Origin: Polytrichum commune
Taxonomy: Eukaryota; Streptophyta; Polytrichopsida; Polytrichales; Polytrichaceae
DNA length: 64,000 nucleotides
Reading direction: 5' to 3'
Assembly (NCBI GenBank): GCA_950295325.1
Contig: OX485808.1
Span: 33,689,180-33,753,179 of the forward strand
Made by a program: the position numbers and the translations under genes. A model generated the notes under the pieces. It had not been told where the DNA came from. It saw nothing but the letters and a program-made list of their open reading frames with translations, and made no database searches. Shown one piece after another: positions 2,393-56,705 of the stretch; positions within the stretch are counted from its first letter, which is position 1, and every line of letters begins with the position of its first letter.

Positions 2393-3025
2393 AGGTGTTA
2401 TGATTATTCACCGAACATAAAAAGAGTGAAGTGTGGTGTGGATTTAAGTTTAGGCATTAGGTGGTGTTGCGTGATTATTTCAAGGTTGATTTCAATAAGA
2501 GGATGCCTTGATTAGGTGAGTAGGGGGTAAGGTGAGGCAAGGTGAGCTCCGCGGGTTAAATGCCCACTTTTGGATCCACTTTGTTAGTTTAGGAAGAAGG
2601 AAACTTGGTGGATGGGGATTAGTCCCTACTTTGGAGGAGAGGGTTAAAGGATTGTAATTGGAGGTGCTAATCCTCTCACCCTATCATCACCTCTCTCTCC
2701 CTCTCTCCCTCTTTGCTACTTAAGGTGTTTTTTCTCTCATTTGCCTCTCTCTCCATCAAGCGCTCTCAAGGGAGCAAGCTCTTAAGAGCTTGAGCCACGT
2801 GTGTGGGTTATTAGTTTTTAGTGAAGTTAATTAGTTAAGCTCAGACTCTCTTTCAAGTTCTCCCACGGGAGTGAGCTCTTATAGTTGAAAGCCACATGTG
2901 TGGATTAGTTAGCCCTTAGTGATGTTAGATAGCTAGTTAGTTAATTAGTTCAAATCACGAAATCAAGTAGTGAAGTATCTAATTAGAGGCTTAGGGTCAC
3001 CAAATTAGCGTGTAGTTTAAAAGGT
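2393..3025. other. Non-coding stretch with a ~110-bp direct duplication
   Basis: No gene seen. A CT-rich tract lies at about 2686-2757. A segment at about 2762-2850, with GGAGCAAGCTCTT and GAGCCACGTGTGTGG, is repeated in diverged form at about 2858-2950 as GGAGTGAGCTCTT and AAAGCCACATGTGTGG. The region could be a degenerate LTR or promoter, but nothing decides this. Confidence 0.5.
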
Positions 3026-3375
3026 CCAGCATACTAAGAGGCTTCCAGCATACTAAGGAGCTACTGTCCTCGGTCCAGCAGACCGAGGAGCTACTGGCCT
3101 CGGTCCAGCATACTAAGGGGCGACCAGCAGACCGAGGAGCTACTGGCCTGGGCCCAGCATACTAAGGGGCTACCAGCAGACCGAGGAGCTACTGGCCTCG
3201 GCCCAGCATACTAAGGGGCTACTAGCAGACCGAGGAGCTACTGGCCTCGGCCCAGCATACTAAGGGGCTACCAGCAGACCAAGGAGCTACTAGCCTCGGT
3301 CCTCGGTTCAGCATACTAAGGGGTTGCCAGCATACTAAGGAGCTACTGTCCTCGGACCAGCAGACTAAGAAGCAA
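3026..3375. repeat. 49-bp minisatellite with a hairpin in each unit
   Basis: The anchor CCAGCATACTAAGG recurs at 3105, 3154, 3203 and 3252, an exact 49-bp period. Less regular units flank it from 3026 and up to about 3375. Most units contain CCGAGGAGCTACTGGCCTCGG-like sequence, whose CCGAGG and CCTCGG ends can pair. There are roughly seven units in total. Confidence 0.85.
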
Positions 3376-7457: not shown

Positions 7458-10400
7458 CTAATCAATGAAAATCCGCCGAGCAGCAACATCCCTGGTAATG
7501 TGAATCCCCACATAAACGTCCGCATCACCAACAGTGACTTCGAATGCAGTCTTAAGATGAGCAATCATCTTGGTCAAAAGATCTTTATCTTTACACATTG
7601 CCAAGCCATCATCCACCCATAGAGCAAGGACAAGACGAGGTGTTGTGGTGGAGACAAAGACACAAGGGTCCGCAGTACTCTGAAGAAGATCATATGCTTT
7701 CAGAAAAGCAGAAAAAGTAGAATTCCAGCTGCGAGCAGACTGCTTCAACCCATAAAGACCTTTAAGAATTCGACACACCTTGCCCCGACTTTCAGGATAA
7801 TGTTTGTGAAACCACTCTTCAAAGCCAAAAGGCAAATCCATGAAAATGATTTCACGAATAGTGGAATTGAGGTAAGCAGTTTTAATATCAAACTGCACAA
7901 GGATCAATCCGTCAGCACCCGCAATTGACAGAAGAATTCTGATGCTCTCAGCTCGGGCAGTGGGAGCAAAAGTCTCTGTATAATCAATCCCAGGAGATTG
8001 AGTAAACCCTTTGGCCACTAATCGAGCTTTGAAACGCTCAATGGTGCCGTCTGATTTGACTTTTATACGAAAAACCCACTTGTTCTTGACAGTAGTACGC
8101 CCTGGTGGCAAAGTCTCTAGTGACCATGTTTCATTCTTAAGCAGTGAATTAATTTCCTCCAACATAGCTTTCTCCCACTCTGCTTTATATAATTCTGACT
8201 TCAAAGCTTGACTGAACGTTTGAGGTTCAGATGGTAGCACAGACACACGTTGGGGTGATTTTGCTTTAGCTGCAGCCACAAATGACTGTGAAGCAACAGC
8301 AGGATGAGAATCAGCTGTATTATCCAAGTAAAACTCAGAAAGAGGTCGTGTTCGAATAGTAGGATTGAGAAGGTCAGGTGATTCAGAGGGAGTCATAGCC
8401 ACTGATGATGACCTAAGAGGAGACTCAGAAGCTCCCGGAGAAAAATCAGAATCAGGACAAGACGACGGATTGAGACTACTATTAGAAGACCTCGGAGAAG
8501 CATTACTTGAGAATGACAGAGAGCGATTAAGCAACGGAGACACTCCCACTGATTCCCTGACAGATAACGAGTTAGACTCAACCTCATCAGGAACATTTGA
8601 AGCGCCGGCTCCCACTGAGACAGGTTCACTGTGAACACTTTGAGATGATTCAGGGAACACAGGAGTCAGTGAGTCATGAGATTCATCAGGAAAAAGGAGA
8701 GAATAGTCAGGAGGAGAAGTGGTCCTGATAATAGAAGACGAAAAATTAGGAGATGTGTCCTCATCGAAAATCACATCACGAGAATGCAGAATTCTCCGTT
8801 TAGCCATCGACCATAATCGATAAGCCTTTGAAGTCGGACAGTAACCAAGGAATAAACATTCCTGAGCCTTGCTATCAAGCTTTGCTCTAACTTCCTTTGG
8901 GACATGAGCATAACAGACACTGCCGAACTCTTTGAAATGACTAACATCTGGCTTGTAGCCATACCACTTAGTGAATGGGGTTTCACCATTAAGAGTCCGA
9001 CTAGCAACTCTGTTAAGGACATAGACTGCTGTATTAACAGCTTCACCCCAGAATTCAAGTGGAAGAGATTTTTGATAAAGCATGCTCCTGACACTCTCAA
9101 CTACTGTACGATTATCTCTTTCGACCACAGAATTTTGCTCTGGAGAGTAAAGAGCTATGAGTTCATGACGAATGCCCTTTTGCTTGATGAAATCCTGAAA
9201 ATCTCGGGAGAGAAATTCTTTCGCGTTGTCTGTGCGAAGTTTGACCATAGATCGACCAGTTTCTTTCTTGGAGAGTTTATAGAGACTCTTGAAAACAGAC
9301 AGAATACCTTTTTGATCTGGCAGGAGAAAGACAAAACGAAAGCTACTATGATCGTCTTTAAAAGTCATGAAGTAGGAATGACCGCCAAGGGAAGGAACCT
9401 GAAGCGGACCAACCAGATCAGTGTGGAAGAAAAGACCTGGAAGAGGAACACGCTTTCGCTCGGGATTGACAGGGAAGGGACGGCGATGTATTTTGCCATG
9501 AACACAACCAGTACAGACAAGAGGATTTGCCTTACTGAAAGAAGGAAGACCAAGAACAGTTTCCCGGCTACTCATATCTCTGATCGTCCGGAAACTAGCA
9601 TGACCAAGGCGAGTGTGCCACCGGTGAAGACTTAAGGTAGATCGAGATGAATGTCCCGGAGAAGCCACAGAAGCAAGATTAGCTTCGCTGGAAGGAGTGA
9701 CAGAAATGATATCAAGCTTCCAGAGACCATCAGCTTGAGATCCAATCATGAGGAGTCGGCCAGCACCATCGTGAGTTATCATTTTGCACTCATTTCGAAC
9801 ATGAATGATGGCAACGTGTTTCTCTGTGAGTCGGCTGATGGAAATCAGGTTCCGCCGAAGATGAGGCACATACAAGACATTCTGAAGTTTGAATGGCCTG
9901 ATTACTCCATTGATAGTAGCATGCACTGTGATATCACCAACGCCTCGTACATACAGAAGATGATCATCAGCAATAGAAACACTCCAACATTTGTCTTGAA
10001 CCGGATGAAAATTTGTGAACCACTGCCTTTTGTCGGACATGTGCTCAGTAGCACCGGAATCAGCAATCCAGGAAAAATCGATTTCTCGTGAAGAATCAAG
10101 CTTACTGGACTGTGCACAATAGGCTTCACTGGAAACGTATTCAGAGGAGTCTGAATGTGTAGATACGGCACTTGCAGTGACGTGAGCGTGACTACGCTTC
10201 CCCTTAGAGGAGATTTTGCGAAGAGAACGAAAATCCCCCTTATGCGCCTTGTGACGCTTCGGTGATTCAACAGATGTAGAAGAATCACTGTCCTGCGGAC
10301 ACTCTTTACCAAAATGGCCTCGCCTGCCACACTTATAACAACGAGATCTACGCTTCTGTCTGGCTAACCGTTCTGCGCGCTCATGTTTTTTTTCGACAGT

Positions 10401-11081
10401 CTGAGTGGAATTAGGCTTCGATACTGCCGGTAAAGAACCTTGAGCGAAAAACACCTGTTCTAACGGAGACTCAGGTAGCAAAGCACGATCACGGAGTTTG
10501 TGCTGAAACTTGACAAGCCGTGTTTGAAAAGAAAGAAGAGTCTGCTCGGCAACAGGAAGATTATCCCAAGCTAGAAGAAGTGGATCATACGCCGAGGGCA
10601 GACCGCACTTAATTTTGCTTATCAGCTGTTGATCAGAAATTGGTTGACCAAGATCGGTCAATTGCTTCGCCAATTTCTTTAAGGAACTAATGAAAACGGC
10701 AATAGACTCATCAGCACTAAGCTTGCTTCCGTAATACTTTTCTTGAAGCGCAATGATGCACTCATCGGAGTGCTGGTCGTGATAAGCTTGGAGCTGCATC
10801 CACATTTCATGAGAAGTGGTGCAGTTGATAACCTCCGCCTTGTGGTGCGAATCAAGGGTGGCCAAAATTGCTACAATGGCTTGCTTGTCTTTTTTCTCCC
10901 AGAGCAATTTATCAGCAGCAGTACTAAGAGCAGCCTTCTTCAGAGTACCATTGACGACAGGAAAAAGATCTCGAGATTGAAAAATGAAACTCAAATGCAT
11001 CTTCCATAAGTGAAAGTTGCTGCCATCGTATTTATCGACTGAGCTAGACTCCCGGATGTCTGACATGGCACTGGCGTCCAT
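7458..11081 (-). CDS. Copia gag-pol polyprotein (truncated, 1207 aa)
   Basis: Encodes the polyprotein of a Ty1/copia element. Visible parts: gag N-terminus with a YDGSNFHLWK motif near residue 18; zinc knuckle CX2CX4HX4C near 248-261; aspartic protease motif DSGA near 341; GAG-pre-integrase zinc-binding HTRLGH region; integrase core (HTDLVGP ... RTDNAKEF ... Glu); and reverse transcriptase with KARLVAKGF, FDIKTAYLN and the active site LWVDDGL (usual YVDD). The ATG at 11081 follows the LTR and primer site. The ORF ends at a TAG (7458-7460) inside the RT/RNase H connection; beyond it the frame still reads a Copia-like QRFTETILTKYGFQDAN stretch, so the stop is a secondary mutation. Long ORFs on the plus strand here are antisense shadows. 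Confidence 0.9.
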   Translation of the reverse strand: MDASAMSDIRESSSVDKYDGSNFHLWKMHLSFIFQSRDLFPVVNGTLKKAALSTAADKLLWEKKDKQAIVAILATLDSHHKAEVINCTTSHEMWMQLQAYHDQHSDECIIALQEKYYGSKLSADESIAVFISSLKKLAKQLTDLGQPISDQQLISKIKCGLPSAYDPLLLAWDNLPVAEQTLLSFQTRLVKFQHKLRDRALLPESPLEQVFFAQGSLPAVSKPNSTQTVEKKHERAERLARQKRRSRCYKCGRRGHFGKECPQDSDSSTSVESPKRHKAHKGDFRSLRKISSKGKRSHAHVTASAVSTHSDSSEYVSSEAYCAQSSKLDSSREIDFSWIADSGATEHMSDKRQWFTNFHPVQDKCWSVSIADDHLLYVRGVGDITVHATINGVIRPFKLQNVLYVPHLRRNLISISRLTEKHVAIIHVRNECKMITHDGAGRLLMIGSQADGLWKLDIISVTPSSEANLASVASPGHSSRSTLSLHRWHTRLGHASFRTIRDMSSRETVLGLPSFSKANPLVCTGCVHGKIHRRPFPVNPERKRVPLPGLFFHTDLVGPLQVPSLGGHSYFMTFKDDHSSFRFVFLLPDQKGILSVFKSLYKLSKKETGRSMVKLRTDNAKEFLSRDFQDFIKQKGIRHELIALYSPEQNSVVERDNRTVVESVRSMLYQKSLPLEFWGEAVNTAVYVLNRVASRTLNGETPFTKWYGYKPDVSHFKEFGSVCYAHVPKEVRAKLDSKAQECLFLGYCPTSKAYRLWSMAKRRILHSRDVIFDEDTSPNFSSSIIRTTSPPDYSLLFPDESHDSLTPVFPESSQSVHSEPVSVGAGASNVPDEVESNSLSVRESVGVSPLLNRSLSFSSNASPRSSNSSLNPSSCPDSDFSPGASESPLRSSSVAMTPSESPDLLNPTIRTRPLSEFYLDNTADSHPAVASQSFVAAAKAKSPQRVSVLPSEPQTFSQALKSELYKAEWEKAMLEEINSLLKNETWSLETLPPGRTTVKNKWVFRIKVKSDGTIERFKARLVAKGFTQSPGIDYTETFAPTARAESIRILLSIAGADGLILVQFDIKTAYLNSTIREIIFMDLPFGFEEWFHKHYPESRGKVCRILKGLYGLKQSARSWNSTFSAFLKAYDLLQSTADPCVFVSTTTPRLVLALWVDDGLAMCKDKDLLTKMIAHLKTAFEVTVGDADVYVGIHITRDVAARRIFID

Positions 11082-11183
11082 TGGAAGTAACGATTATCCT
11101 CTTGATCTTGACGAAAAGAATTGACTTGAAACTAAAGAACTGTTTTCTGGACTTACTTTACTCTATCTGCGCGCAGTAGATGG

Positions 11184-38003: not shown

Positions 38004-38117
38004 TACTTAGACACCACAAAGTTGAGTCCGCCCGTAGCTGCATGGATGAAACCAACGCCCGGGGAGAATTCTGGGCATGATCAGTCATCATCCTAGTGTT
38101 TCCAAAACCCACCGGTT

Positions 38118-38361
38118 ATATGAACCTTATGGTAGGACACCGGTGTCCCATAATACACCGCTTAAACCCTAAAGCCCGTGTCGACATCAAAATGGTCAGT
38201 TGAAGGCGATCGAAGCCTCAACGTTGAGATTGTTTCGACGTCCTACACACACTCTAATGTTCGTAGTGGGCTTTTACTTTCGATCTCTTACAACCACAAA
38301 CCTATCATTAAGGAAGCTCCGATCATTATAGACACCGGTGTCCCGCCATAAGGTTCATATG
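38118..38361. mobile_element. Nested TIR element with ACACCGGTGT ends
   Basis: Terminal inverted repeats of 31 bp with about 3 mismatches. The left contains ATGAACCTTATGG and GACACCGGTGTC; the right is their inverse. It interrupts the family A host, whose ACCGGTTA resumes as TGTT after the element. 244 bp, no ORF. Superfamily not decided. Confidence 0.75.
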
Positions 38362-38455
38362 TTGACCTTGTTTGTTTCTTTTTCTTTATTAGATCATAAA
38401 TTGTTTGTAAATCCCTCTAAATGGATTAGTAATTCTCCTGAAGTCTTGAATTCAA

Positions 38456-38676
38456 ACGTATGAACGTGAAGGACCGACTGCTAATCACATATGCACCGAT
38501 TGAGTTTGAGAAATGACCGGTTGAAGTTCAAGACTTTGGGAAAACTACCGACCATTTAAGAGGAATGTACATTTAAGAAGATACCTCAAATTAATAAATG
38601 GAAACCGGAAGATCACAACATGTCACTGATTGGACTTGGACCAATTGCGTCCAAAACCCTCCCCGGACGTTGATTT
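38456..38676 (+). mobile_element. Family A element nested in another family A copy
   Basis: Opposite orientation to its host. Flanked by GAATTCAA on both sides (38448-38455 and 38677-38684), an exact 8-bp duplication of host sequence. Its ends, CGTATGAACG and CCCCGGACGTTG, have diverged from the family's CAATGAATGG and CCGGACACTG. Confidence 0.75.
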
Positions 38677-38755
38677 GAATTCAACTGGCCATTTCTTTAA
38701 CTCAACCGGTTCGTCTGTAGCTAGTGGTCGGATCTCCCCATTCATTGAATGAAAC

Positions 38756-39345
38756 GCATCTTCTAAACTAGTGTAACTATGACATGATAAAGAAATAAAA
38801 AAACAAGTTGGTACCACACGTGCAGGATCGCATCTTCTAAACTAGTATATCTACAACATAATAAAGAAATTACAAAAAAGAAGAAGACGGTTGGTAGCAC
38901 GGGATCGCATCTTCTAAACTAATGTAACTACAACAAAATAAAGAAATTAAAAAACAAGTTGGCAGTACAGGATCGCATCTTCTAGACTAGTAACTTCAAC
39001 ACAGTGACCGGGGGAGATTTTAGGGCATAATCGGTTACATGTGGACATCCTCCGGTTTTCCTTTATTAAATTGGGGTATAATATTCTATAAATTCCTCGA
39101 AAATGATCGGTAATTCTCCTGCAGTCTTGAACTTCAACAGGTTATTTCTCAAACTCAACTGGTTCATTTGTAACCAACTGCCAGTTCTCCCCGATCATTA
39201 CTACAACATACTAAAGATTTTTATTTAATTTAATTTAATTAAAAAAAAAAGTTGGTAGCACAGGATTGCATCTTGTAAACTAGTAACTACAATAATATAA
39301 AGAAATTAAGGAAAAAACAGTTGGCAGCACATGCATGCAGGATGA
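38756..39345. repeat. ~75-bp tandem repeat, interrupted by a family A element
   Basis: Units contain GCATCTTCTAAACTAGT, AACTACAACA, TAAAGAAATT and a GTTGGCAGCAC-like piece. About four and a half units, with 39002-39200 inserted after the fourth. Confidence 0.75.
39002..39200 (-). mobile_element. Family A element inserted in a tandem array
   Basis: Begins CAGTGACCGGGGGAGATT and ends TTCTCCCCGATCATTA. Flanks are CTTCAACA (38994-39001) and CTACAACA (39201-39208). Other units of the array have a single CTACAACA at this place, an internal empty-site control. Confidence 0.82.
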
Positions 39346-42917: not shown

Positions 42918-45900
42918 TTACAAAATCGGCGTCATGAGGCCAGAGTCGAGGCGCTCGAGGGTGCGTTTGGTGGGGCCTTGTTGTTGGAGGCTTTGGACCT
43001 CCTTGTAGGTGTACCAGCGCGCGAGGGCGAGGAAGAAGGCGAGGTTGGCGGCGGAGAGTCCCGCGAGGAGCCAGTAGAAGAGGTCGAGTCGGCAGCGGTT
43101 GAGGTTGTCGACGATCCAGCTTTGGCCGCCCGCGAGGCTGGTGACGCGCACGATGCCGGACAGCAGCACGGAGCTCAGGAAGTTGCCGATGCCAATAGTG
43201 CTCAGGAAGATGGCGGTGCCCAGGCTGCGCATGGAGTCGGGCGCCTGGTCGTAGAAGAACTCGAGCGCGCCGATCGACGTGAACACCTCGGCCGCGCCCA
43301 GGAACACGTACTGCGGCAGCAGGATGAACACACTCATCGGCACCGTCTCGTTCGGCAGGTCCAGCAGCCCGTGCTCCTTCGCAATCTGCACCACACCACA
43401 ATGGCCAACAGCTGGTCGGTTAATGATTCCTATTACATTCCGATTACAATTTGCAGTCGTCTCTGCTGGAAGAAGGAAAAAAAATTACTAGAAAGGGAAG
43501 AAGGTGCAACGAGTGCCTTCAAGGTGATCTTTAAGGACATGACAAGAAAGCTCAGAATCGATGGGTTTGTGTAGCAGTTCATTAACTGTATCGCACTTCC
43601 TGAATCTGCAATTTCAAGAACTTGGTCTCTCAAGATTCTTAAGCCAAAGGCAAGAATATCAAATCTCAGTTAATTTATTGGTTACTACTATCGCCAGTGG
43701 TTAAACTTAATAAGTTGGGTTGAAACAACTTTAGAATTATCTCAATTAACCACTCTGCCATTTCTCAAAGAATATTCCAATTGGCAAGCACATTATTAAT
43801 TCCACCCAAGTGCCTTCCGTAGTATCATTGAGAATCTGACAAGAAACTCTGGAATGGGTGGATGTGTAAGTCTCGCTGTATGTCGTGTAAGTAGGAGTCT
43901 GTTTGGCATTGCTCAGGTACCGCAATCTGCAATTTTGATGGGTAGTCTGGTGATACTTTATGGGCACCTGACAAGAAATCCTTCATGCACTCAGTGAAAG
44001 AATCCCTGAGACTTCTCTTAGTTAGGTGAGCTATCAGCCTGTGCGAGTATAGTAATTGGGGCTCCCTGTTCTAAGAAGTTCAAGCGAAATTCAAAACCTC
44101 ATAAAATTGATATCACACATGGCAGACTAAAATCTGCCAACTTGATTGGTTTCTCAAGATGTCACATGAAACTCGATGCATTGGAATAGATGTCAAAGAG
44201 ATAGATGTGCAGAAATTTATCAGGGGTTTGAGGTAAGGTATGTGGGTATTGTTCACTTCGTTTTTCAAGTTCTCCAACTTCCACCGATTAGATTTACAAC
44301 AAACAAAACTTATATTGCATTAGCAAAGCTATGTTGAAACATTAGCCACAATCAGATTGCAAATCAGATCTCCCCGGATTTAGTTATGGTTATTAAAAGT
44401 TCATGCTTGTTGATTCCTAAAGTGAATACGTAGGTCCTCCCACCTGTTGAGGGTAGAGCTCTTAATAAGATATGAAGGTTTAGTCCAATCTCTTTTAAAC
44501 ATGTGTCTTTAGGGTGTTTGTTTTTTGATCGTCACCTAACACCACACCAGCCAAATTTAGATGTTTGATTAAGAAAAGCAACCGACTAACACCCACCTTA
44601 AATCTGATTTGAGAGTTCCCAAGGGTTTCGAATGAGGCAGATGGGCCGTAAATTGTTTACCTTGACACGTTGGATTTCAGTGATGGCGGCAGCCACCATA
44701 GAGAGAAGGGAGAGGAAGATGCCGATTCCGATCCTCTGAAGCATCGAGATGCCCCGCACATTTCCAGTGAAGTGGCGCGCGACAGGCACAAACACGCGGT
44801 CGTAAATCGGGATGAGGCACACGATTGTGATGGGGATGAAGCTCTGCAGTGAGGCTGCCGGGATCTTGAAGTTCTTGCTCAGATTCACGTTCAGCGTGTT
44901 GCCTTGGCGAGTGTAGAACGTGGAGATTTGCGCGGGGAGCGTTGCAAAGAGCAGCGCCGCGACCCAAATGGGTAGCAGCCGGATCACAAGCTTCACTTCC
45001 TCGACCTCTGTGACCGTCGCAAGCCGCCACGGGTTGTTGCGCGTGTTTTTGGTGATTGTGGCGTCCTCCTCGCTGTGAATCGTTGCGGGGTCTTCCACAA
45101 TCGCCGCTCTATCAAGAAACCTGCACAAATGGTAGAATCCAAAATCATGGGAAAGAAATCCAGTTGAGTTTCACCATGAGACGTGCTGTATTTTGAAACC
45201 GAAACGCACAGACGGAAATGCTCGTCAATCAAAAGATTCGAACGTTTGAACCGGACATGGGTAAGCGATAAACAAATTTCAAGCCGCATCGCATCACTTT
45301 AAGTAGCTCAGTTAGGGGACCAGATTAGGCAAACCAGGGACGGTATTTCAAGTACCAATGGATCAAAGTCAAAATTGGTCATGTGAAAAATGACGAACAA
45401 TCAAATTTCAACTTGGAAACTTGATTATATGGCCCACCAGTATAATGGCCTCTAACATTTGAATAATTGGTCTATTAAGCACAGTTACATCCCATTTAGA
45501 TTCAACTAGATGCATTGGCATTAGTATCAAAGTGGACATTCAACTTATAATCGGACTCTCTTCCAATAATGCTTCCAACACCCCCAACTTTTTTTGAAAC
45601 AGTGTAAGATCATATCCAATATAAAATAATACACCTTTATCTTTATCTATATTTTTTGCAAGGATCGTACCTTCAACCCATGAATGTTGAAGGTACATTT
45701 ACAAAGTTTCAAAATTTGTGGAAGTATTAGGTCACTCTGAAAAGTAAATCAGTACATCCAAAACCTTACCAAATGAAATTATTTGATCGTTACTGTACAA
45801 TCCAATCTAGGGTTTTACGGTAGCTCAACGCAACACCAACACCCAACCTATGACCACCCAAATAAATGGGAGGGTCCATTTTAGACCGAAAATCTAGGAC

Positions 45901-48900
45901 ATCCAAGGATCATCTCATTCATTGACACTCCTAAATGAATGAGAGGATCCTTGGACGTCCTAGTCTATTTGCGTTCTAAAACGAAGCCCACCTGGCATGC
46001 ATTTGGGTGGTCATAGGTTAACTTTGGCGTTGGTGATAGGTTGGGACCTTAAGTGAAACCCAACAAAGCCATAGTCATGTAAGTCGACAGATCATAAGTT
46101 GCACTAGATTGAGATAATCAAACCTCATCGTGTTTGAGTGCGGGATTAGGCGCGTCCCCGCCGTGAGGGACTCCTTGTCGCAAACCTCGTACAACGAGCT
46201 CGAGTCGGCGGGGATCTCCATGTGGCACTTGCGCACGGCCGCCACGACCACCTGCGCCAATGAATGGAGAGAACCAACCGCCAGTTACAGATGAAGCAAG
46301 TTGAGTTTGAGAAATAACCGGTTGATGTTCCAAACTTCATGAACACTACCGATCATTTTGGAGGAATCTGTGGGAATATATCTTAAATTTTTTTAAAAGG
46401 AAGAAGCGAAAGATCACAACATGTAACCGGTTGGACTTGGAAACAACACTAGGATTCTGACCGATTATGCCCAAAAATCTCACCACCGGACACTGACCTG
46501 CGCGATCTGCGTGAACGGGCTCCCCGTGGGGGGCTTGTGGCGGTAATACTTCATCCCCACCACGTACAGGATCAAATACACGCCCATGAGCACGGTGGGC
46601 GTGCCGAAGCCCCACCCCCAGCTCACGTAGTCCTGCACATACACGAGCACGGTGGCCGAGATTAACCCCCCGATGCTGATCCCAAACACCCACCAGTTGA
46701 AGAACGACTTCTTCATCGCGCACTCGCGTGTATCCTCCTCGTCGAACTGGTCGGCGCCAAACGCCGCGATGCACGGCTTCATGGAGCCTCCGCCGAGCGA
46801 CATGAGGTAGAGCGCAAAGTAGAAGAATCCGACCTGCCCCGCGGTCGCGGGTAAGCAGTGCGCGTAGCCGGCGCCCGTGCCCTCGCATGGAGGCGGCTTG
46901 AATACGTGCACTGTGACCGATAACGTCAGCATTATCAAACCCTGCAAAATGTTATGCAGCAATTAAATTGTAGATTTAGAACCGTGGAAGTCGAAACAAG
47001 TCAACTTCAATCGAGCTTTAAGGTATGCAGGTGTTATTCGTCGGCTTACTTTTCTGAATTGGACACCCTTTACATGATCGATGTGTGGGTAGGTGTGGAT
47101 CAGAGAGCAAACACCATGAACACACATGTGCAAAAGAGATTGGATTACGTCTTCAAATTTCATCAACTACTCCACACTCAATGGTGAACACAACTGGGAT
47201 GACCTATGTGTTTAGTTAAGGAAGTCAATAAACGTTCACTTCCGCTAACCATAACTAGCTATATCAGGAGAGGTTGGATTTTCAATCCGATTTTTGTTGT
47301 CATTTATGAAATCTTCTAATGCTGATGAAGGCACCGGCTTCACGCTGGCTTAGATCCTTATGGTTACCATTTTGGAGAACTTATTGTGAAACAACATGAG
47401 AAATTGGTCCAGTCCAGTGGCATATTGTTTGCCAGAAATAGATTAGTAGAATATGTAGGGCAATGGATGAGTCATGAATGGGAAGATAAGAATAATTGTA
47501 AGCTGGGTCAGTACATAGAGGGCCTGAGTCCTCCTTATTTTGACGTGACATTAGTGGAATCAAAGCAGAAAGGCTAACATAACTAGAAATGGAAAAGAAT
47601 CTCAAACTTTTGATGTTATTGAAAACAACTATCACAAGACATTTATGATTTGTACACCCCTGTCCTGAAACGTCATCTCTGTACTCCAAAGCAAAAAAAT
47701 TACTACTGAACCTTGTAAGATTGTAGTCAGTCAGTTTTTTCAACTCTTGAGTAAAGTGTTTGGTTAAGAAATTAGGAATAAGAATTTAAGGATTGAAAAA
47801 TTAGAATTTTATTGATAAGGTTTTCCGTATCAATCTTGGTTTCGCTACAGCGTGAAAGACGCGCGAACTCAAGCGGCGTAACAGAATTATATGTTCCGCA
47901 AGTTTGACCCCAGATTCACCCAAAATTGAAGTCAATTTTAATTCATCATGTCATCAAACTCTTATCTTACTTCCAAAGAATCTACATACACATTCTTTCG
48001 ATTGACAAGTATTTCACGACGCCCATTCAGAAACTTGCCGACTTTCTTATTTTGAGATAGGAAATCAAATTCTGAGGTGGGACACCCTAACTCTAACACT
48101 TATGGTTTCATTTCATAAACACTACTGAAGGGTGTCTTACATCCCGAAGACTGGATTGAAAATTATCGGTGAGGGTTTCTGGAACAATCTTGGTTACCTA
48201 GAGTGTCAGACGTGGCAGCCTTAAGTGGTGCTAAAACAGTATGGGCTCTGCAAAGTTTGACAGCTAACTCAATTCACAGTGCCGAACGCAAATGAGCGAG
48301 GTCAATTCTCATTGAATTATCACGCAAGTGGTTCAGCTCACTTTTTAAGAAACTATACATTCATTGGCATGACATTTTGACATTCAGATTTAGCTCCCTT
48401 ACGACACTCGCTCTTCTTCTTGATTTCGACATAGCCAAAATCAACATCTGAGGTGGGAAAGTGATGGGTATTAAAATTCACATGTCAATGACCGGAGAAA
48501 AACACAGAATCTAGGTCCAGCTGTTCATATAGATATTTCAAATTTTTGGGTGACTCAGTTTTTAGGTAGCCCAAAATGTAGCTGATTCTGATTGAATTTC
48601 CATGTAAATGGTTCAGCTCAGTTCTTAAAAATCTATACATTCATTGACAAGACAAGTTGATATTTAAATTTATCTTCCTTTCAGCAACGCCCAGTTCTAA
48701 AACCTGCTGCTCTGTTTAGGTCGACATAGCCAGCTGACAATAAACTCTGGGGTGGGACGTTGAAGGGTATAAGTCATATCTCGAAGGCTGGAGACAGAAA
48801 CAAAACTCAACAGTTGTTTCAGAGACTTTCAAATTTTCGGGTGGGTCGATTTCGCTGTCTCCAATAATGGGACTTCATGGAGCGGACTAGTTGAGTAAAT

Positions 48901-50878
48901 GGTGATGAAGATTGGGCACTGACCACGAAATAGACGGTGCCGAAGATGAGAATGGTCCAGAACCGCCCCCAAAAGGCGTCGGCGAGGAAGGCACCCAATA
49001 ACGGTGCAATGAACGTCGCGCCAATCCAGTTGTTCACATTTGTGGCCGACACTTCCGTCCCCTCGTGCAACACATGCGTGAGGTATGTCACCAAGTTCGC
49101 CGAAATTCCATAGAACGCCAACCTTTCGCCGATCTCGATTCCTACAATACACAAGACCACCAAATCTCATCTTCCTCAGAAACCTATTAAACTGCAACAC
49201 ATGCTACTGATAATACAAGAGTTTATGTACAAAAGAAATTTATTAAAGAAGAAGACACTGGCCTTCACCATCCATAGAAAACAACCTCTTGTCAATCTCA
49301 GTTCCCAAAATATGCAGGACCAATAAGCTAGATCTTCCGCACAAACCTACCAAACTACAGTTACACATGCTACCGAAGATGAAAGACTTGACACGCTTGG
49401 ACTTTTACCAATGATGAAATATTAATCATCGTTAGGACGACAATATCTTGCCGATCTCAATTCCTACAATATTGTAGCCTGACGGGATACCAAACTGCAA
49501 CATATGCTACCGATGATGGAGGATTTAACACGAGGATTTAACCGCTAATGAAGGCAAATTCGGCCTTCCACATCCATAGAACGTCAACCTCTCGCTAATC
49601 TCAATTCCTACAATCCACAAGACTACCAAGCTTCACCTTCCTCGGAGACCTACCAAACTACAACACAAGCTACCTATGATGAAGGATTTTACTTGGACTT
49701 TACCAATGATTAAGACATTGACCTTCATCATCCTCAGCCAATTTTTTTTGCCTAGTATCTCAATTACTACATTACTGTAACATAGGATCACCAAACTTCA
49801 CGTTCCTCAGAAACCTACCAAACTGCAACATATGCCCAACATATGCAAGATTTCCTACCGGTGATGAAGGTTTTTACACACTTGGACTTTACCAATGATG
49901 AACGCATTGGCCTTCATCATCCTTAAAACGCCAATTTCTTGCCGATATTAGTTCCTACAATACTAAAATCTTCCTCAGAAACCTACCAAACTGCGACACA
50001 TGTAATGCACTATTGTACACAAGAATTTTACCAATGATGAAGGCATTGGCCTTCATCATCTATAGAACGCCAGACTCTCGCCCATCTTCATTCCTACAAT
50101 GAACAGGACCAACAAGCTTCTGAATCACCTTCCTCAGGACCTACCAAACTGCAACCCATGCTACTGATGATGAAGGATTTTTACACAATGGCTTCACCGA
50201 TGATTGGCTTTCATCCTCCATAGAAGAAAACCTCTCGCCGATCTCGATTCCTATAATATACAGGACTACCAAGCTTCAAATTCCTGAGAAACCTAACAAA
50301 CTGCAACACATGCTACCGATGATGAAGGACACTTCACAAAGATATTACTAATGATCAAAGGCACAGAACGCCAATCTCTCTCACCGCTCTCAATTCCTAC
50401 AAGATACAGGACCACGAGACTTCATCTTCCTCAATGACCTACCAAATTCCAACACATGCTACCGATGATGAAATATTTTACACAAGGAACTTACCGATTG
50501 GCCTTCATCATCCATAGAACGCCAACCCCTCACCAATTTCGATTTATACAATACATAGGACCACCAAACTTCACCTTCTTCAGTAGTTAATCTACCACAT
50601 TGCAACACTGCATGCTATAGCATTCGGTTCTTCATTTTCTTGATATTAAGTAGGAAAGTGCAGCAGGGACAAAATAAAAGCTTACCGATGATGAAGGCAT
50701 TGGCCTTTAACCGGCCGGTGGTCTTCTTGTCAATGGGCTTGCCTCTGTAGTCCACCGCACCATCTTTGGCTAAGCTCACCGCCCGGACCAGACCAGGCGG
50801 CCGCCGAGTGCTGCTGGCCCTGTATTTTGTGTTGCAAATGGGGACGACTTTGTTGCTCTCTGCCTCCATCGCTTGCAT
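42918..50878 (-). CDS. NPF (NRT1/PTR family) proton-coupled transporter (636 aa)
   Basis: Six exons, minus strand: 50878-50686, 49141-48924, 46941-46498, 46251-46124, 45120-44661 and 43385-42918, all GT-AG and in frame (1911 nt). The family is plasma- or vacuolar-membrane 12-TM symporters of nitrate, di/tripeptides or hormones. Visible features: DGAVDYRGKP near residue 39; the proton-coupling ExxER motif as E67-I-G-E-R71; FYGISANLVTYLT; the family signature KPC..AFGADQFD; SFFNWW; a hydrophilic central loop around PPTGSPFTQIAQ; and C-terminal LPQYVFLGAAEVFTS, EFFYDQAPDSMRSLGTA. It looks most like the NPF8/NPF5 (peptide-transporter) clades, but the substrate is not predictable. The coding exons are GC-richer than the introns. 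Intron 3 is a transposable element and intron 1 a tandem array (separate entries). Confidence 0.95.
44229..44540 (+). repeat. Family B repeat, copy 2 (in NPF intron 5)
   Basis: Matches 17430-18010 and 58125-58395, but without the family A insertion: GGTATGTGGGTATTG is continuous. It lies in the 1,275-bp intron between exons 5 and 6. Confidence 0.75.
45829..46041. mobile_element. Foldback element in NPF intron 4
   Basis: The two halves are nearly complementary. Left AACCTATGACCACCCAAA, ATCCAAGGATC and CTCATTCAT return as ATGAATGAGAGGATCCTTGG and TTTGGGTGGTCATAGGTT. A long hairpin of about 210 bp with no ORF. Confidence 0.7.
46258..46495 (+). mobile_element. Family A hAT-like element forming NPF intron 3 (introner)
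   Basis: A 238-bp family A copy starting CAATGAATGGAGAGAACC and ending ACCGGACACTG. Flanked by a perfect 8-bp duplication ACCTGCGC (46250-46257 and 46496-46503). The gene's intron is 46252-46497: element plus 8 bp. On the coding strand both duplicates read GCGCAGGT. The first supplies the exon-3 end CAG and the GT donor; the second supplies the AG acceptor and the exon-4 start. The element end facing the acceptor gives a pyrimidine-rich GTTCTCTCCATTCATTG tract. Removing it leaves IAQ-VVV in frame. Confidence 0.9.
47800..48830. repeat. Diverged ~300-bp tandem repeat in NPF intron 2
   Basis: Three diverged units share GG(T/G)GTGGGA, TACATTCATTG.CA, AAATGGTTCAGCTCA-like and CGACATAGCCA pieces, at about 47930-48180, 48230-48500 and 48570-48830. 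Confidence 0.5.
49255..50640. repeat. Tandem array in NPF intron 1 built from exon 1/exon 2 edges
   Basis: About nine units of 140-190 bp. Each, on the plus strand, has the order GGCCTTCATCATCCATAGAA, CGCCAACCTCTCGCCGATCT, CATTCCTACAAT, ACCACCAA(A/G)CTTC, TTCCTCAGAAACCTACCAAA, TGCAACACATGCTACCGATG and ATGAAGG. The second part is the start of exon 2 (its reverse complement encodes GIEIGERLAFYG) with its acceptor; the last part is the end of exon 1 with its donor. Units are 10-25 % diverged by eye. Confidence 0.85.
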
Positions 50879-56519: not shown

Positions 56520-56705
56520 CAATGAATGGGGAGAACCGACCACTAGTTTCAAAAGAGCCGGTTGAGTTTGAGAAATAGCCAGTTGGAGTTCAAGACTTTA
56601 GGAAAATTACAGATCATTTCAGGAGAATCTGTAGAATATACCTCAAATTCGTAAGAAGAAGTAAGAAGAAGAAACCGATCATGCCCAAAATCTCCCTGGA
56701 CACTG
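56520..56705 (+). mobile_element. Family A element, copy near 56.5 kb
   Basis: Begins CAATGAATGGGGAGAACCG and ends CTCCCTGGACACTG, 186 bp. Flanks CCTTTTTC (56512-56519) and CCTTCATT (56706-56713) agree at 5 of 8 positions, so this insertion is older or the flanks have decayed. Confidence 0.7.

What the first reader, a model, noticed from the sequence alone, without database searches (positions are those of the whole stretch)
46250..46503. A hAT-like element has become a complete intron (introner) in the NPF transporter gene
Seen in the sequence: intron 3 (46252-46497, minus strand) equals one dispersed family A element (46258-46495) plus 8 bp. The element is bracketed by a perfect duplication ACCTGCGC/ACCTGCGC (coding strand GCGCAGGT). 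One duplicate provides CAG|GT at the donor, the other the AG| acceptor, and excision restores the reading frame. The element end near the acceptor supplies a pyrimidine tract. Established knowledge: DNA-transposon introners with 8-bp duplications that carry AG|GT are described mainly in algae such as Aureococcus. I know of no standard example of such an exactly intron-sized event in a land-plant NPF gene. If confirmed, it is intron birth caught with its source family present in the same 64 kb.
Basis: partly seen in the sequence, partly recalled or inferred. Interest (0 to 1): 0.95.

Follow-up and report, generated by a model that had tools for sequence, protein, structure and literature searches.

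The report
Transposon turned intron in moss genes
In a moss genome, a short jumping DNA element landed inside a nutrient-transporter gene in just the way that lets the cell cut it out of the message as an intron, and a sister copy did the same in a second, unrelated gene, so new introns seem to arise this way in land plants too.

Summary
Confirmed and extended. Intron 3 of the NPF gene (window 46252-46497, minus strand) is a 238-bp family A element plus one copy of its perfect 8-bp target duplication GCGCAGGT. Donor CAG|GT and acceptor CAG| come from the two duplicates. Excision leaves an intact 633-residue NPF protein; retention stops after residue 287. Family A is a hAT-like MITE: 20 of 62 full-length copies have 8/8 duplications, against 0.5% in shuffled flanks. 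In the same genome 20 of the 21 other NPF matches cover the site, and all 20 run through it uninterrupted. The element is 11% from its family consensus, so the insertion looks old; a neutral coding sequence would rarely have stayed intact that long, which argues for splicing. A second case: a family A copy with duplication AGCCAGGT splits a CYP73-like gene, while four CYP73-like relatives lack that intron. No transcript was available; splicing is inferred. TE-into-AGGT intron gain, and maize Ds acting as an intron, are known; a 3,325-genome survey reports no introners in land plants. Two introns are shown; nine more candidates could not be read.

The parts
46252..46497 (-). intron 3 of the NPF gene (246 nt), formed wholly by the insertion: element plus one 8-bp duplicate
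   Evidence: sequence and gene model
46258..46495 (-). family A hAT-like MITE copy, 238 bp, CAGTGTCCGG...CATTCATTG
   Evidence: relatives genome-wide
46496..46503 (-). target-site duplicate at the donor side (GCGCAGGT; gives CAG|GT)
46250..46257 (-). target-site duplicate at the acceptor side (GCGCAGGT; gives CAG| and the first GT of exon 4)
50686..50869 (-). NPF exon 1 (ATG at 50869)
48924..49141 (-). NPF exon 2; the intron after it begins GTCAGTG, as intron 3 does
46498..46941 (-). NPF exon 3, ends ...FTQIAQ
46124..46251 (-). NPF exon 4, begins VVVAAVRK...
44661..45120 (-). NPF exon 5
42918..43385 (-). NPF exon 6 with stop codon
17472..17695 (-). family A copy, flanks CACCCACA/TACCCACA (7/8)
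39004..39199 (+). family A copy, flanks CTTCAACA/CTACAACA (7/8)
38460..38668 (-). family A copy, apparently nested in another family A copy (pieces at 38061-38123 and 38675-38747, plus strand)
   Evidence: nesting read by eye
56521..56704 (-). family A copy, 186 bp, flanks match 5/8

Best explanation
A non-autonomous hAT-like MITE inserted into an exon of a moss NPF transporter gene (now exons 3 and 4) at the protosplice sequence GCGCAGGT. Cut-and-paste insertion duplicated the 8 bp. The upstream duplicate plus the element's first bases make the donor CAG|GTCAGT; the element's other end carries a branch-like CTGTAAC (33 nt follow its second A) and a pyrimidine stretch (TTCTCTCC), and the downstream duplicate supplies the acceptor AG. 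The spliceosome removes element plus 8 bp, which restores the exact coding sequence, so the insertion was tolerated and kept. The same family did the same at AGCCAGGT in a CYP73-like gene. Shown: insertion anatomy, empty-site coding continuity, absence in paralogues, second case. Inferred: the splicing itself, the branch point, and retention because splicing makes the insertion harmless.
For: Anatomy exact. Family-wide 8-bp duplications and CAGTG/CATTG ends. Gene model 633 aa without a stop; retention stops after residue 287. No gap at the join in the two NRT1.1 alignments shown, and none within 12 residues in 107 of the 120 best-listed homologues, of 4,108 found. 20 of 20 paralogues that cover the join run through it; AG stands before the same codon as intron 2's acceptor in 18 of 20, and GT at the same codon as intron 4's donor in 13 of 15 assessed. 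Element 11% from consensus in a star-like family, terminal branches 90% of tree length; at that divergence a neutral 1,899-nt CDS gained 5.5 stops on average and none in 0.4% of 3,000 simulations. Second case L056: duplication AGCCAGGT 8/8, empty-site frame of 223 codons, best structure match Cinnamic acid 4-hydroxylase, no gap within 12 residues in the 120 best-listed of 1,242 homologues; that gene is split at the site, while four other CYP73-like copies are not, one about 4 kb away at 78% identity. Of 62 copies only these two have both 80-bp flanks at 55% GC or more, and they have the two longest empty-site frames.
Against: No RNA. No protein database entry near 100% that would show the spliced message: best NPF 76%, best listed C4H 70%. 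In exons 4-6 alone the neutral simulation leaves 6% without a stop; for the L056 exon at its 15% divergence, 8%. In L056 a second frame is open for 218 codons, so frame length alone is weak there. 13 of the 120 listed NPF homologues have an indel somewhere within 12 residues of the join. Donor position +3 is C, not the usual purine (consensus recalled). One covering paralogue, L098, has a stop in its match and one, L099, is only 29% identical.
Confidence: 0.9

Rival explanations
1. The insertion is a gene-breaking mutation: the element is retained in the message (or spliced badly) and the gene is dead or dying.
For: No transcript seen; retention gives a stop at once; a perfect 8/8 duplication could mean a young insertion.
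Against: Element 11% from consensus, yet the 1,899-nt coding sequence has no stop or frameshift in the model; 5 indel events in 224 positions of the element scale to about 42 in the CDS; exact splice sites at the joins; same anatomy in a second gene.
Confidence: 0.06
2. An older intron stood at this codon and family A merely inserted into it or replaced it.
For: Family A also lies in existing introns: by eye L005 and L079 just inside a donor, L008 at an acceptor.
Against: Nothing is left of the intron beyond element plus 8 bp; the duplicates are exon sequence on both sides; 20 of 20 paralogues covering the site have no intron there.
Confidence: 0.02
3. Tandem duplication of an AGGT-bearing exon segment made the intron, and the similarity to family A is secondary.
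For: This route also uses duplicated AGGT (PMC3443670, passages; PMC4974935, start of abstract seen).
Against: The intron interior is a family A copy end to end with the family's own termini, not duplicated exon.
Confidence: 0.01

Closest known systems
Introners of DNA-transposon type (Gozashti et al. 2022, PMC9860276; abstract, passages and Methods section 15 read)
   Same: Non-autonomous element with TSD and terminal repeats that becomes a whole intron; splice sites taken partly or wholly from the duplication; coding length mostly unchanged
   Different: That survey reports none in land plants and kept only families of at least four similar introns; here two introns are shown, 11% and 15% from consensus, in a moss
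Maize Ds1/Ds elements spliced as introns (Dennis 1988, Wessler 1991, Giroux 1994; titles seen in reference lists; details recalled)
   Same: hAT-superfamily element in a plant exon, 8-bp duplication, removed by splicing
   Different: Those are mutant alleles, with alternative sites as I recall; here the predicted removal is exact, the gene intact and the insertion old
Transposon insertion into AGGT as an intron-gain model (Yenerall and Zhou 2012, PMC3443670; passages)
   Same: This mechanism, with 35 events listed for Oryza, Drosophila, Oikopleura and Zea
   Different: Here the source family is identified with many copies, it hits two genes in one register, and the element end contributes donor positions +3 to +6
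Aureococcus and Micromonas introners (recalled; Aureococcus and M. pusilla mentioned in PMC9860276 passages)
   Same: TSD-bearing DNA elements that make introns
   Different: Algal, with many introns per genome (recalled); that scale is not shown here

Membership tests
hAT superfamily (non-autonomous, MITE) | 8-bp target-site duplication | tested here: met
   20 of 62 full-length copies 8/8, 20 more 7/8, 22 with 4-6; shuffled flanks 0.5% and 3.7%
hAT superfamily (non-autonomous, MITE) | short terminal inverted repeats with CAnTG-type ends (recalled) | tested here: met
   consensus ends CAGTGTCCGGGGAG and CTCCCCGTTCATTG: inverted match imperfect, by eye
hAT superfamily (non-autonomous, MITE) | mobilised by a hAT transposase from the same genome | not tested
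   no search for a matching autonomous element was made
Spliceosomal intron | GT-AG ends and restored reading frame | tested here: met
   CAG|GTCAGT ... GCGCAG|GT, intact 633 aa
Spliceosomal intron | spliced transcript | not testable with these tools
   no RNA data; protein searches listed no near-identical product
Introner family | similarity to the same element runs to both exon-intron borders in introns of unrelated genes | tested here: met
   NPF and CYP73-like genes
Introner family | at least four such introns in one genome (criterion of PMC9860276) | tested here: inconclusive
   two shown; 12 of 15 span-pattern matches look like family A, 3 of the 12 read (2 coding, 1 not), 9 unread
Newly gained intron | absent from the position in relatives | tested here: met
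   paralogues in the same genome: NPF 20 of 20 covering the site, CYP73-like 4 of 4; orthologues in other species not testable at DNA level

The most novel reading that the evidence does not exclude
Family A is a true introner family of a land plant: a high-copy hAT-like MITE whose ends complete a donor (GT + CAGT) and carry branch-like and pyrimidine signals, so that any insertion at NNNNAGGT in an exon is born as a clean intron, and it has seeded many introns across this moss genome in both orientations.
Probability: 0.55. Interest if true: 0.88.

Novelty: new member of a known kind. Interest (0 to 1): 0.74.

Why it matters
Intron gain is rarely caught with its source. The 3,325-genome survey reports introners in no land plant (PMC9860276) and draws on that when arguing which lineages gain introns. 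A moss with a numerous MITE family that has made at least two clean introns would show that the route is open in land plants and that a threshold of four similar introns can miss it. The genome holds many datable copies in and out of exons, so the claim that splicing is what lets exon insertions survive can be tested directly.

Tried and rejected
Looked for more cases. (a) 5'-end pattern AGGTN{0,4}CARTGTCCNGG: 49 matches, 17 in the reversed control; all 49 loci fetched; 24 of 49 have a family A hit at the site and 25 do not (the coding test was run on the 24 only). Of the 24, 7 have AGGT in both flanks and one, L056, has coding flanks on both sides. (b) 3'-end pattern CCCCATTCATTGN{0,4}AGGT: 17 matches, 2 in the control; 3 already held, 7 of the other 14 fetched with about 130-bp flanks; 4 of these 7 gave a family A hit and none showed a long frame, the other 3 gave no hit. 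(c) Span pattern AGGTCARTGN{200,230}CAYTGNNNNAGGT: 15 matches, 0 in the reversed control; the same pattern with TGGA in place of AGGT gave 6. Two further control 4-mers did not complete, so the 15-to-6 excess rests on one control, and target preference is not excluded. (d) CCCCGTTCATTGN{0,4}AGGT did not complete. Empty-site frames of L005, L007, L008, L022, L027, L044 and L054 were read: by eye L005 lies just inside an intron, L007 near a kinase-like exon end, L008 at an acceptor; no homology search was run on these seven. Pfam on eight other window ORFs gave one domain below its curated cut-off (DUF4283). Paper searches for introners or TE-made introns in plants or mosses listed no land-plant introner family, judged from titles and abstract starts; of the listed papers I opened PMC9860276, PMC3443670, PMC3260210 and PMC10487979 (passages; the last, cites the survey and reports intron gains in green-plant MSH1). 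The species is not known; a seven-chromosome moss suggests Polytrichaceae from recall only.

The P450 figure 'plus exon A' counts a terminal stop by mistake and is not used.

Full report
What was claimed. Intron 3 of an NPF gene is one family A element plus 8 bp, bounded by GCGCAGGT duplicates that supply both splice sites. I checked the letters: ACCTGCGC stands at 46250-46257 and 46496-46503, the element at 46258-46495, and the intron at 46252-46497. The six-exon model built against a Physcomitrium homologue gives an uninterrupted 633-residue protein; with the element retained the frame stops after residue 287.

Which organism. The NPF protein is 76% and 74% identical to two Physcomitrium patens proteins and at most 51% to the other 118 of the 120 listed (the query was a slightly wrong first model). 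A C4H protein from the same genome is 69-70% identical to Ceratodon and Physcomitrium C4H proteins. The window lies in a 407.8-Mb assembly of 64 contigs; the seven largest that I met add up to about 406 Mb.

What family A is. A genome search gave 3,059 first-look candidates, of which 40 were scored and all 40 matched, the 39 besides the window copy itself at 79-83% identity. So the family is large, but its true number was not counted. From all loci held I took 62 distinct full-length copies. Forty have flanking 8-mers that match at 7 or 8 positions (20 at 8 of 8), 22 match at only 4-6; with flanks shuffled between copies the shares at 7 and 8 are 3.7% and 0.5%. The consensus is 226 bp with ends CAGTGTCCGGGGAG and CTCCCCGTTCATTG, an imperfect inverted repeat. 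That is the signature of a hAT-like MITE. No transposase was sought. This sample is not random: 49 loci had been chosen for AGGT beside the 5' end, 7 for AGGT beside the 3' end, and the rest came from the best-scoring copies and from NPF loci.

Age. The tree is star-like: 90% of its length is in terminal branches. The NPF copy is 11% from consensus, rank 25 of 62, and the L056 copy 15.2%, rank 44. If this divergence arose after insertion, a neutral NPF coding sequence of 1,899 nt would carry 5.5 new stops on average and none in 0.4% of 3,000 simulations; exons 4-6 alone 2.7 and 6%. The element shows 5 indel events in 224 positions, which scaled to the coding sequence predicts about 42, and the exon model shows no frameshift. 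For the L056 exon alone the figure is weaker, 8% without a stop. So the NPF gene was probably under selection while carrying the insertion, which needs the element to be removed from the message. This is inference, not observation of splicing.

Was there an intron before. A 114-residue piece around the join found 23 matches in the genome, two of them the halves of the window gene. Of the other 21 loci, 20 align through the join and one (L100) does not cover it. One of the 20 (L098) has a stop codon in its match and one (L099) is only 29% identical. In the 20, AG stands before the same codon as the acceptor of intron 2 in 18 of 20, and GT at the same codon as the donor of intron 4 in 13 of 15 that could be assessed. 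So the gene keeps the family's usual introns on both sides and has one extra. In proteins of other species the join has no gap in the two NRT1.1 alignments shown and none within 12 residues in 107 of the 120 best-listed homologues; the other 13 have an indel somewhere in that stretch.

A second case. Of 49 matches to a pattern for AGGT beside the element's 5' end (17 in the reversed control), 24 have a family A hit at the site, and one of these, L056, has GC-rich coding flanks on both sides. Its duplication is AGCCAGGT 8/8, in the same register as the NPF case, the element is 230 bp, and the empty site reads ...GYDIPAHSQ|VFVNSWW... in a 223-codon frame; a second frame is open for 218 codons, so it is the homology that decides. 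Pfam gives a P450, the best structure match is named Cinnamic acid 4-hydroxylase (6vby), and the 120 best-listed of 1,242 homologues have no gap within 12 residues of the join. In the genome four other CYP73-like copies (66-78% identical), one of them about 4 kb away, run through the site in one frame, while L056 is split there into 1-95 and 85-202; the other 100 of 106 matches are 25-44% identical.

How common. Of the 62 copies, 8 have AGGT in both flanks; 2 of the 8 (NPF and L056) are coding and 6 show no clear coding context, so AGGT duplications as such are not confined to exons. These two are the only copies of the 62 with both 80-bp flanks at 55% GC or more, and they have the longest empty-site frames (223 and 207 codons); the longest among the 54 without AGGT is 187 (L022), 58 of the 62 having at least 400 bp on both sides. 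The strict pattern with AGGT on both sides in this register found 15 matches, 0 in the reversed control, and 6 when AGGT was replaced by TGGA. By the letters shown, 12 of the 15 look like family A or a relative, 7 of them in the opposite orientation. Three of the 12 have been read: two coding, one not (L053).

How it works. GT of the duplicate followed by the element's CAGT gives the donor CAG|GTCAGT; intron 2 of the gene begins with the same seven bases, GTCAGTG. The element's other end has CTGTAAC, with 33 nt after its second A to the end of the intron, and the stretch TTCTCTCC, and the second duplicate gives the AG. In this register the donor is shared between duplicate and element, which may be why both coding cases end in CAGGT. 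The element is 60% A+T against 36-39% in the neighbouring exons, which suits plant splicing (recalled). The branch point is inferred.

Against what is known. The AGGT-insertion route is described with events in rice, maize, Drosophila and Oikopleura (PMC3443670, passages), and maize Ds elements can act as introns (titles in reference lists). The large survey found introners in 175 of 3,325 genomes, reports none in land plants, and required at least four similar introns (PMC9860276; abstract, passages and section 15). My paper searches listed no land-plant introner family in the held library. So this works like an introner and uses a known mechanism; membership under the four-intron rule is open. 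What is new is a repeated, datable case in a moss with the source family at hand.

Noticed in passing
L008 (G000:C7 around 39190414-39190639): A family A copy with a perfect duplication CAGGGTTC sits at what looks by eye like an existing acceptor CAG|GGTTC, so the element appears to have become the 3' end of an older intron.
   Followed up: partly
L079 (NPF paralogue): A family A copy with duplication ATGTCGAT lies a few bases inside the donor GTATGC of this paralogue's intron 4, so family A also lengthens existing introns.
   Followed up: no
L096, L097, L098: Three NPF paralogues align in two pieces that meet near query residues 231-237, which suggests an extra intron there; what fills it was not studied.
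   Followed up: no
window 48917-48923 and 46491-46497: Introns 2 and 3 of the gene begin with the same seven bases, GTCAGTG; intron 2 is at a conserved codon, so this may be coincidence.
   Followed up: no
window 49119-50552: NPF intron 1 holds diverged direct repeats (families D2, D4, D7); the copy at 49119-49239 overlaps the start of exon 2.
   Followed up: no
window 38061-38747: One family A copy appears nested inside another, with flanks GATGAAAC/AATGAAAC around the outer one (read by eye).
   Followed up: partly
window 7458-11093 (minus): A 1,211-codon stop-free frame that looks by eye like a Copia-type retrotransposon polyprotein; no family search was run on it.
   Followed up: no
window 2996-3375: Tandem array, copies mostly 49 bp apart.
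   Followed up: no
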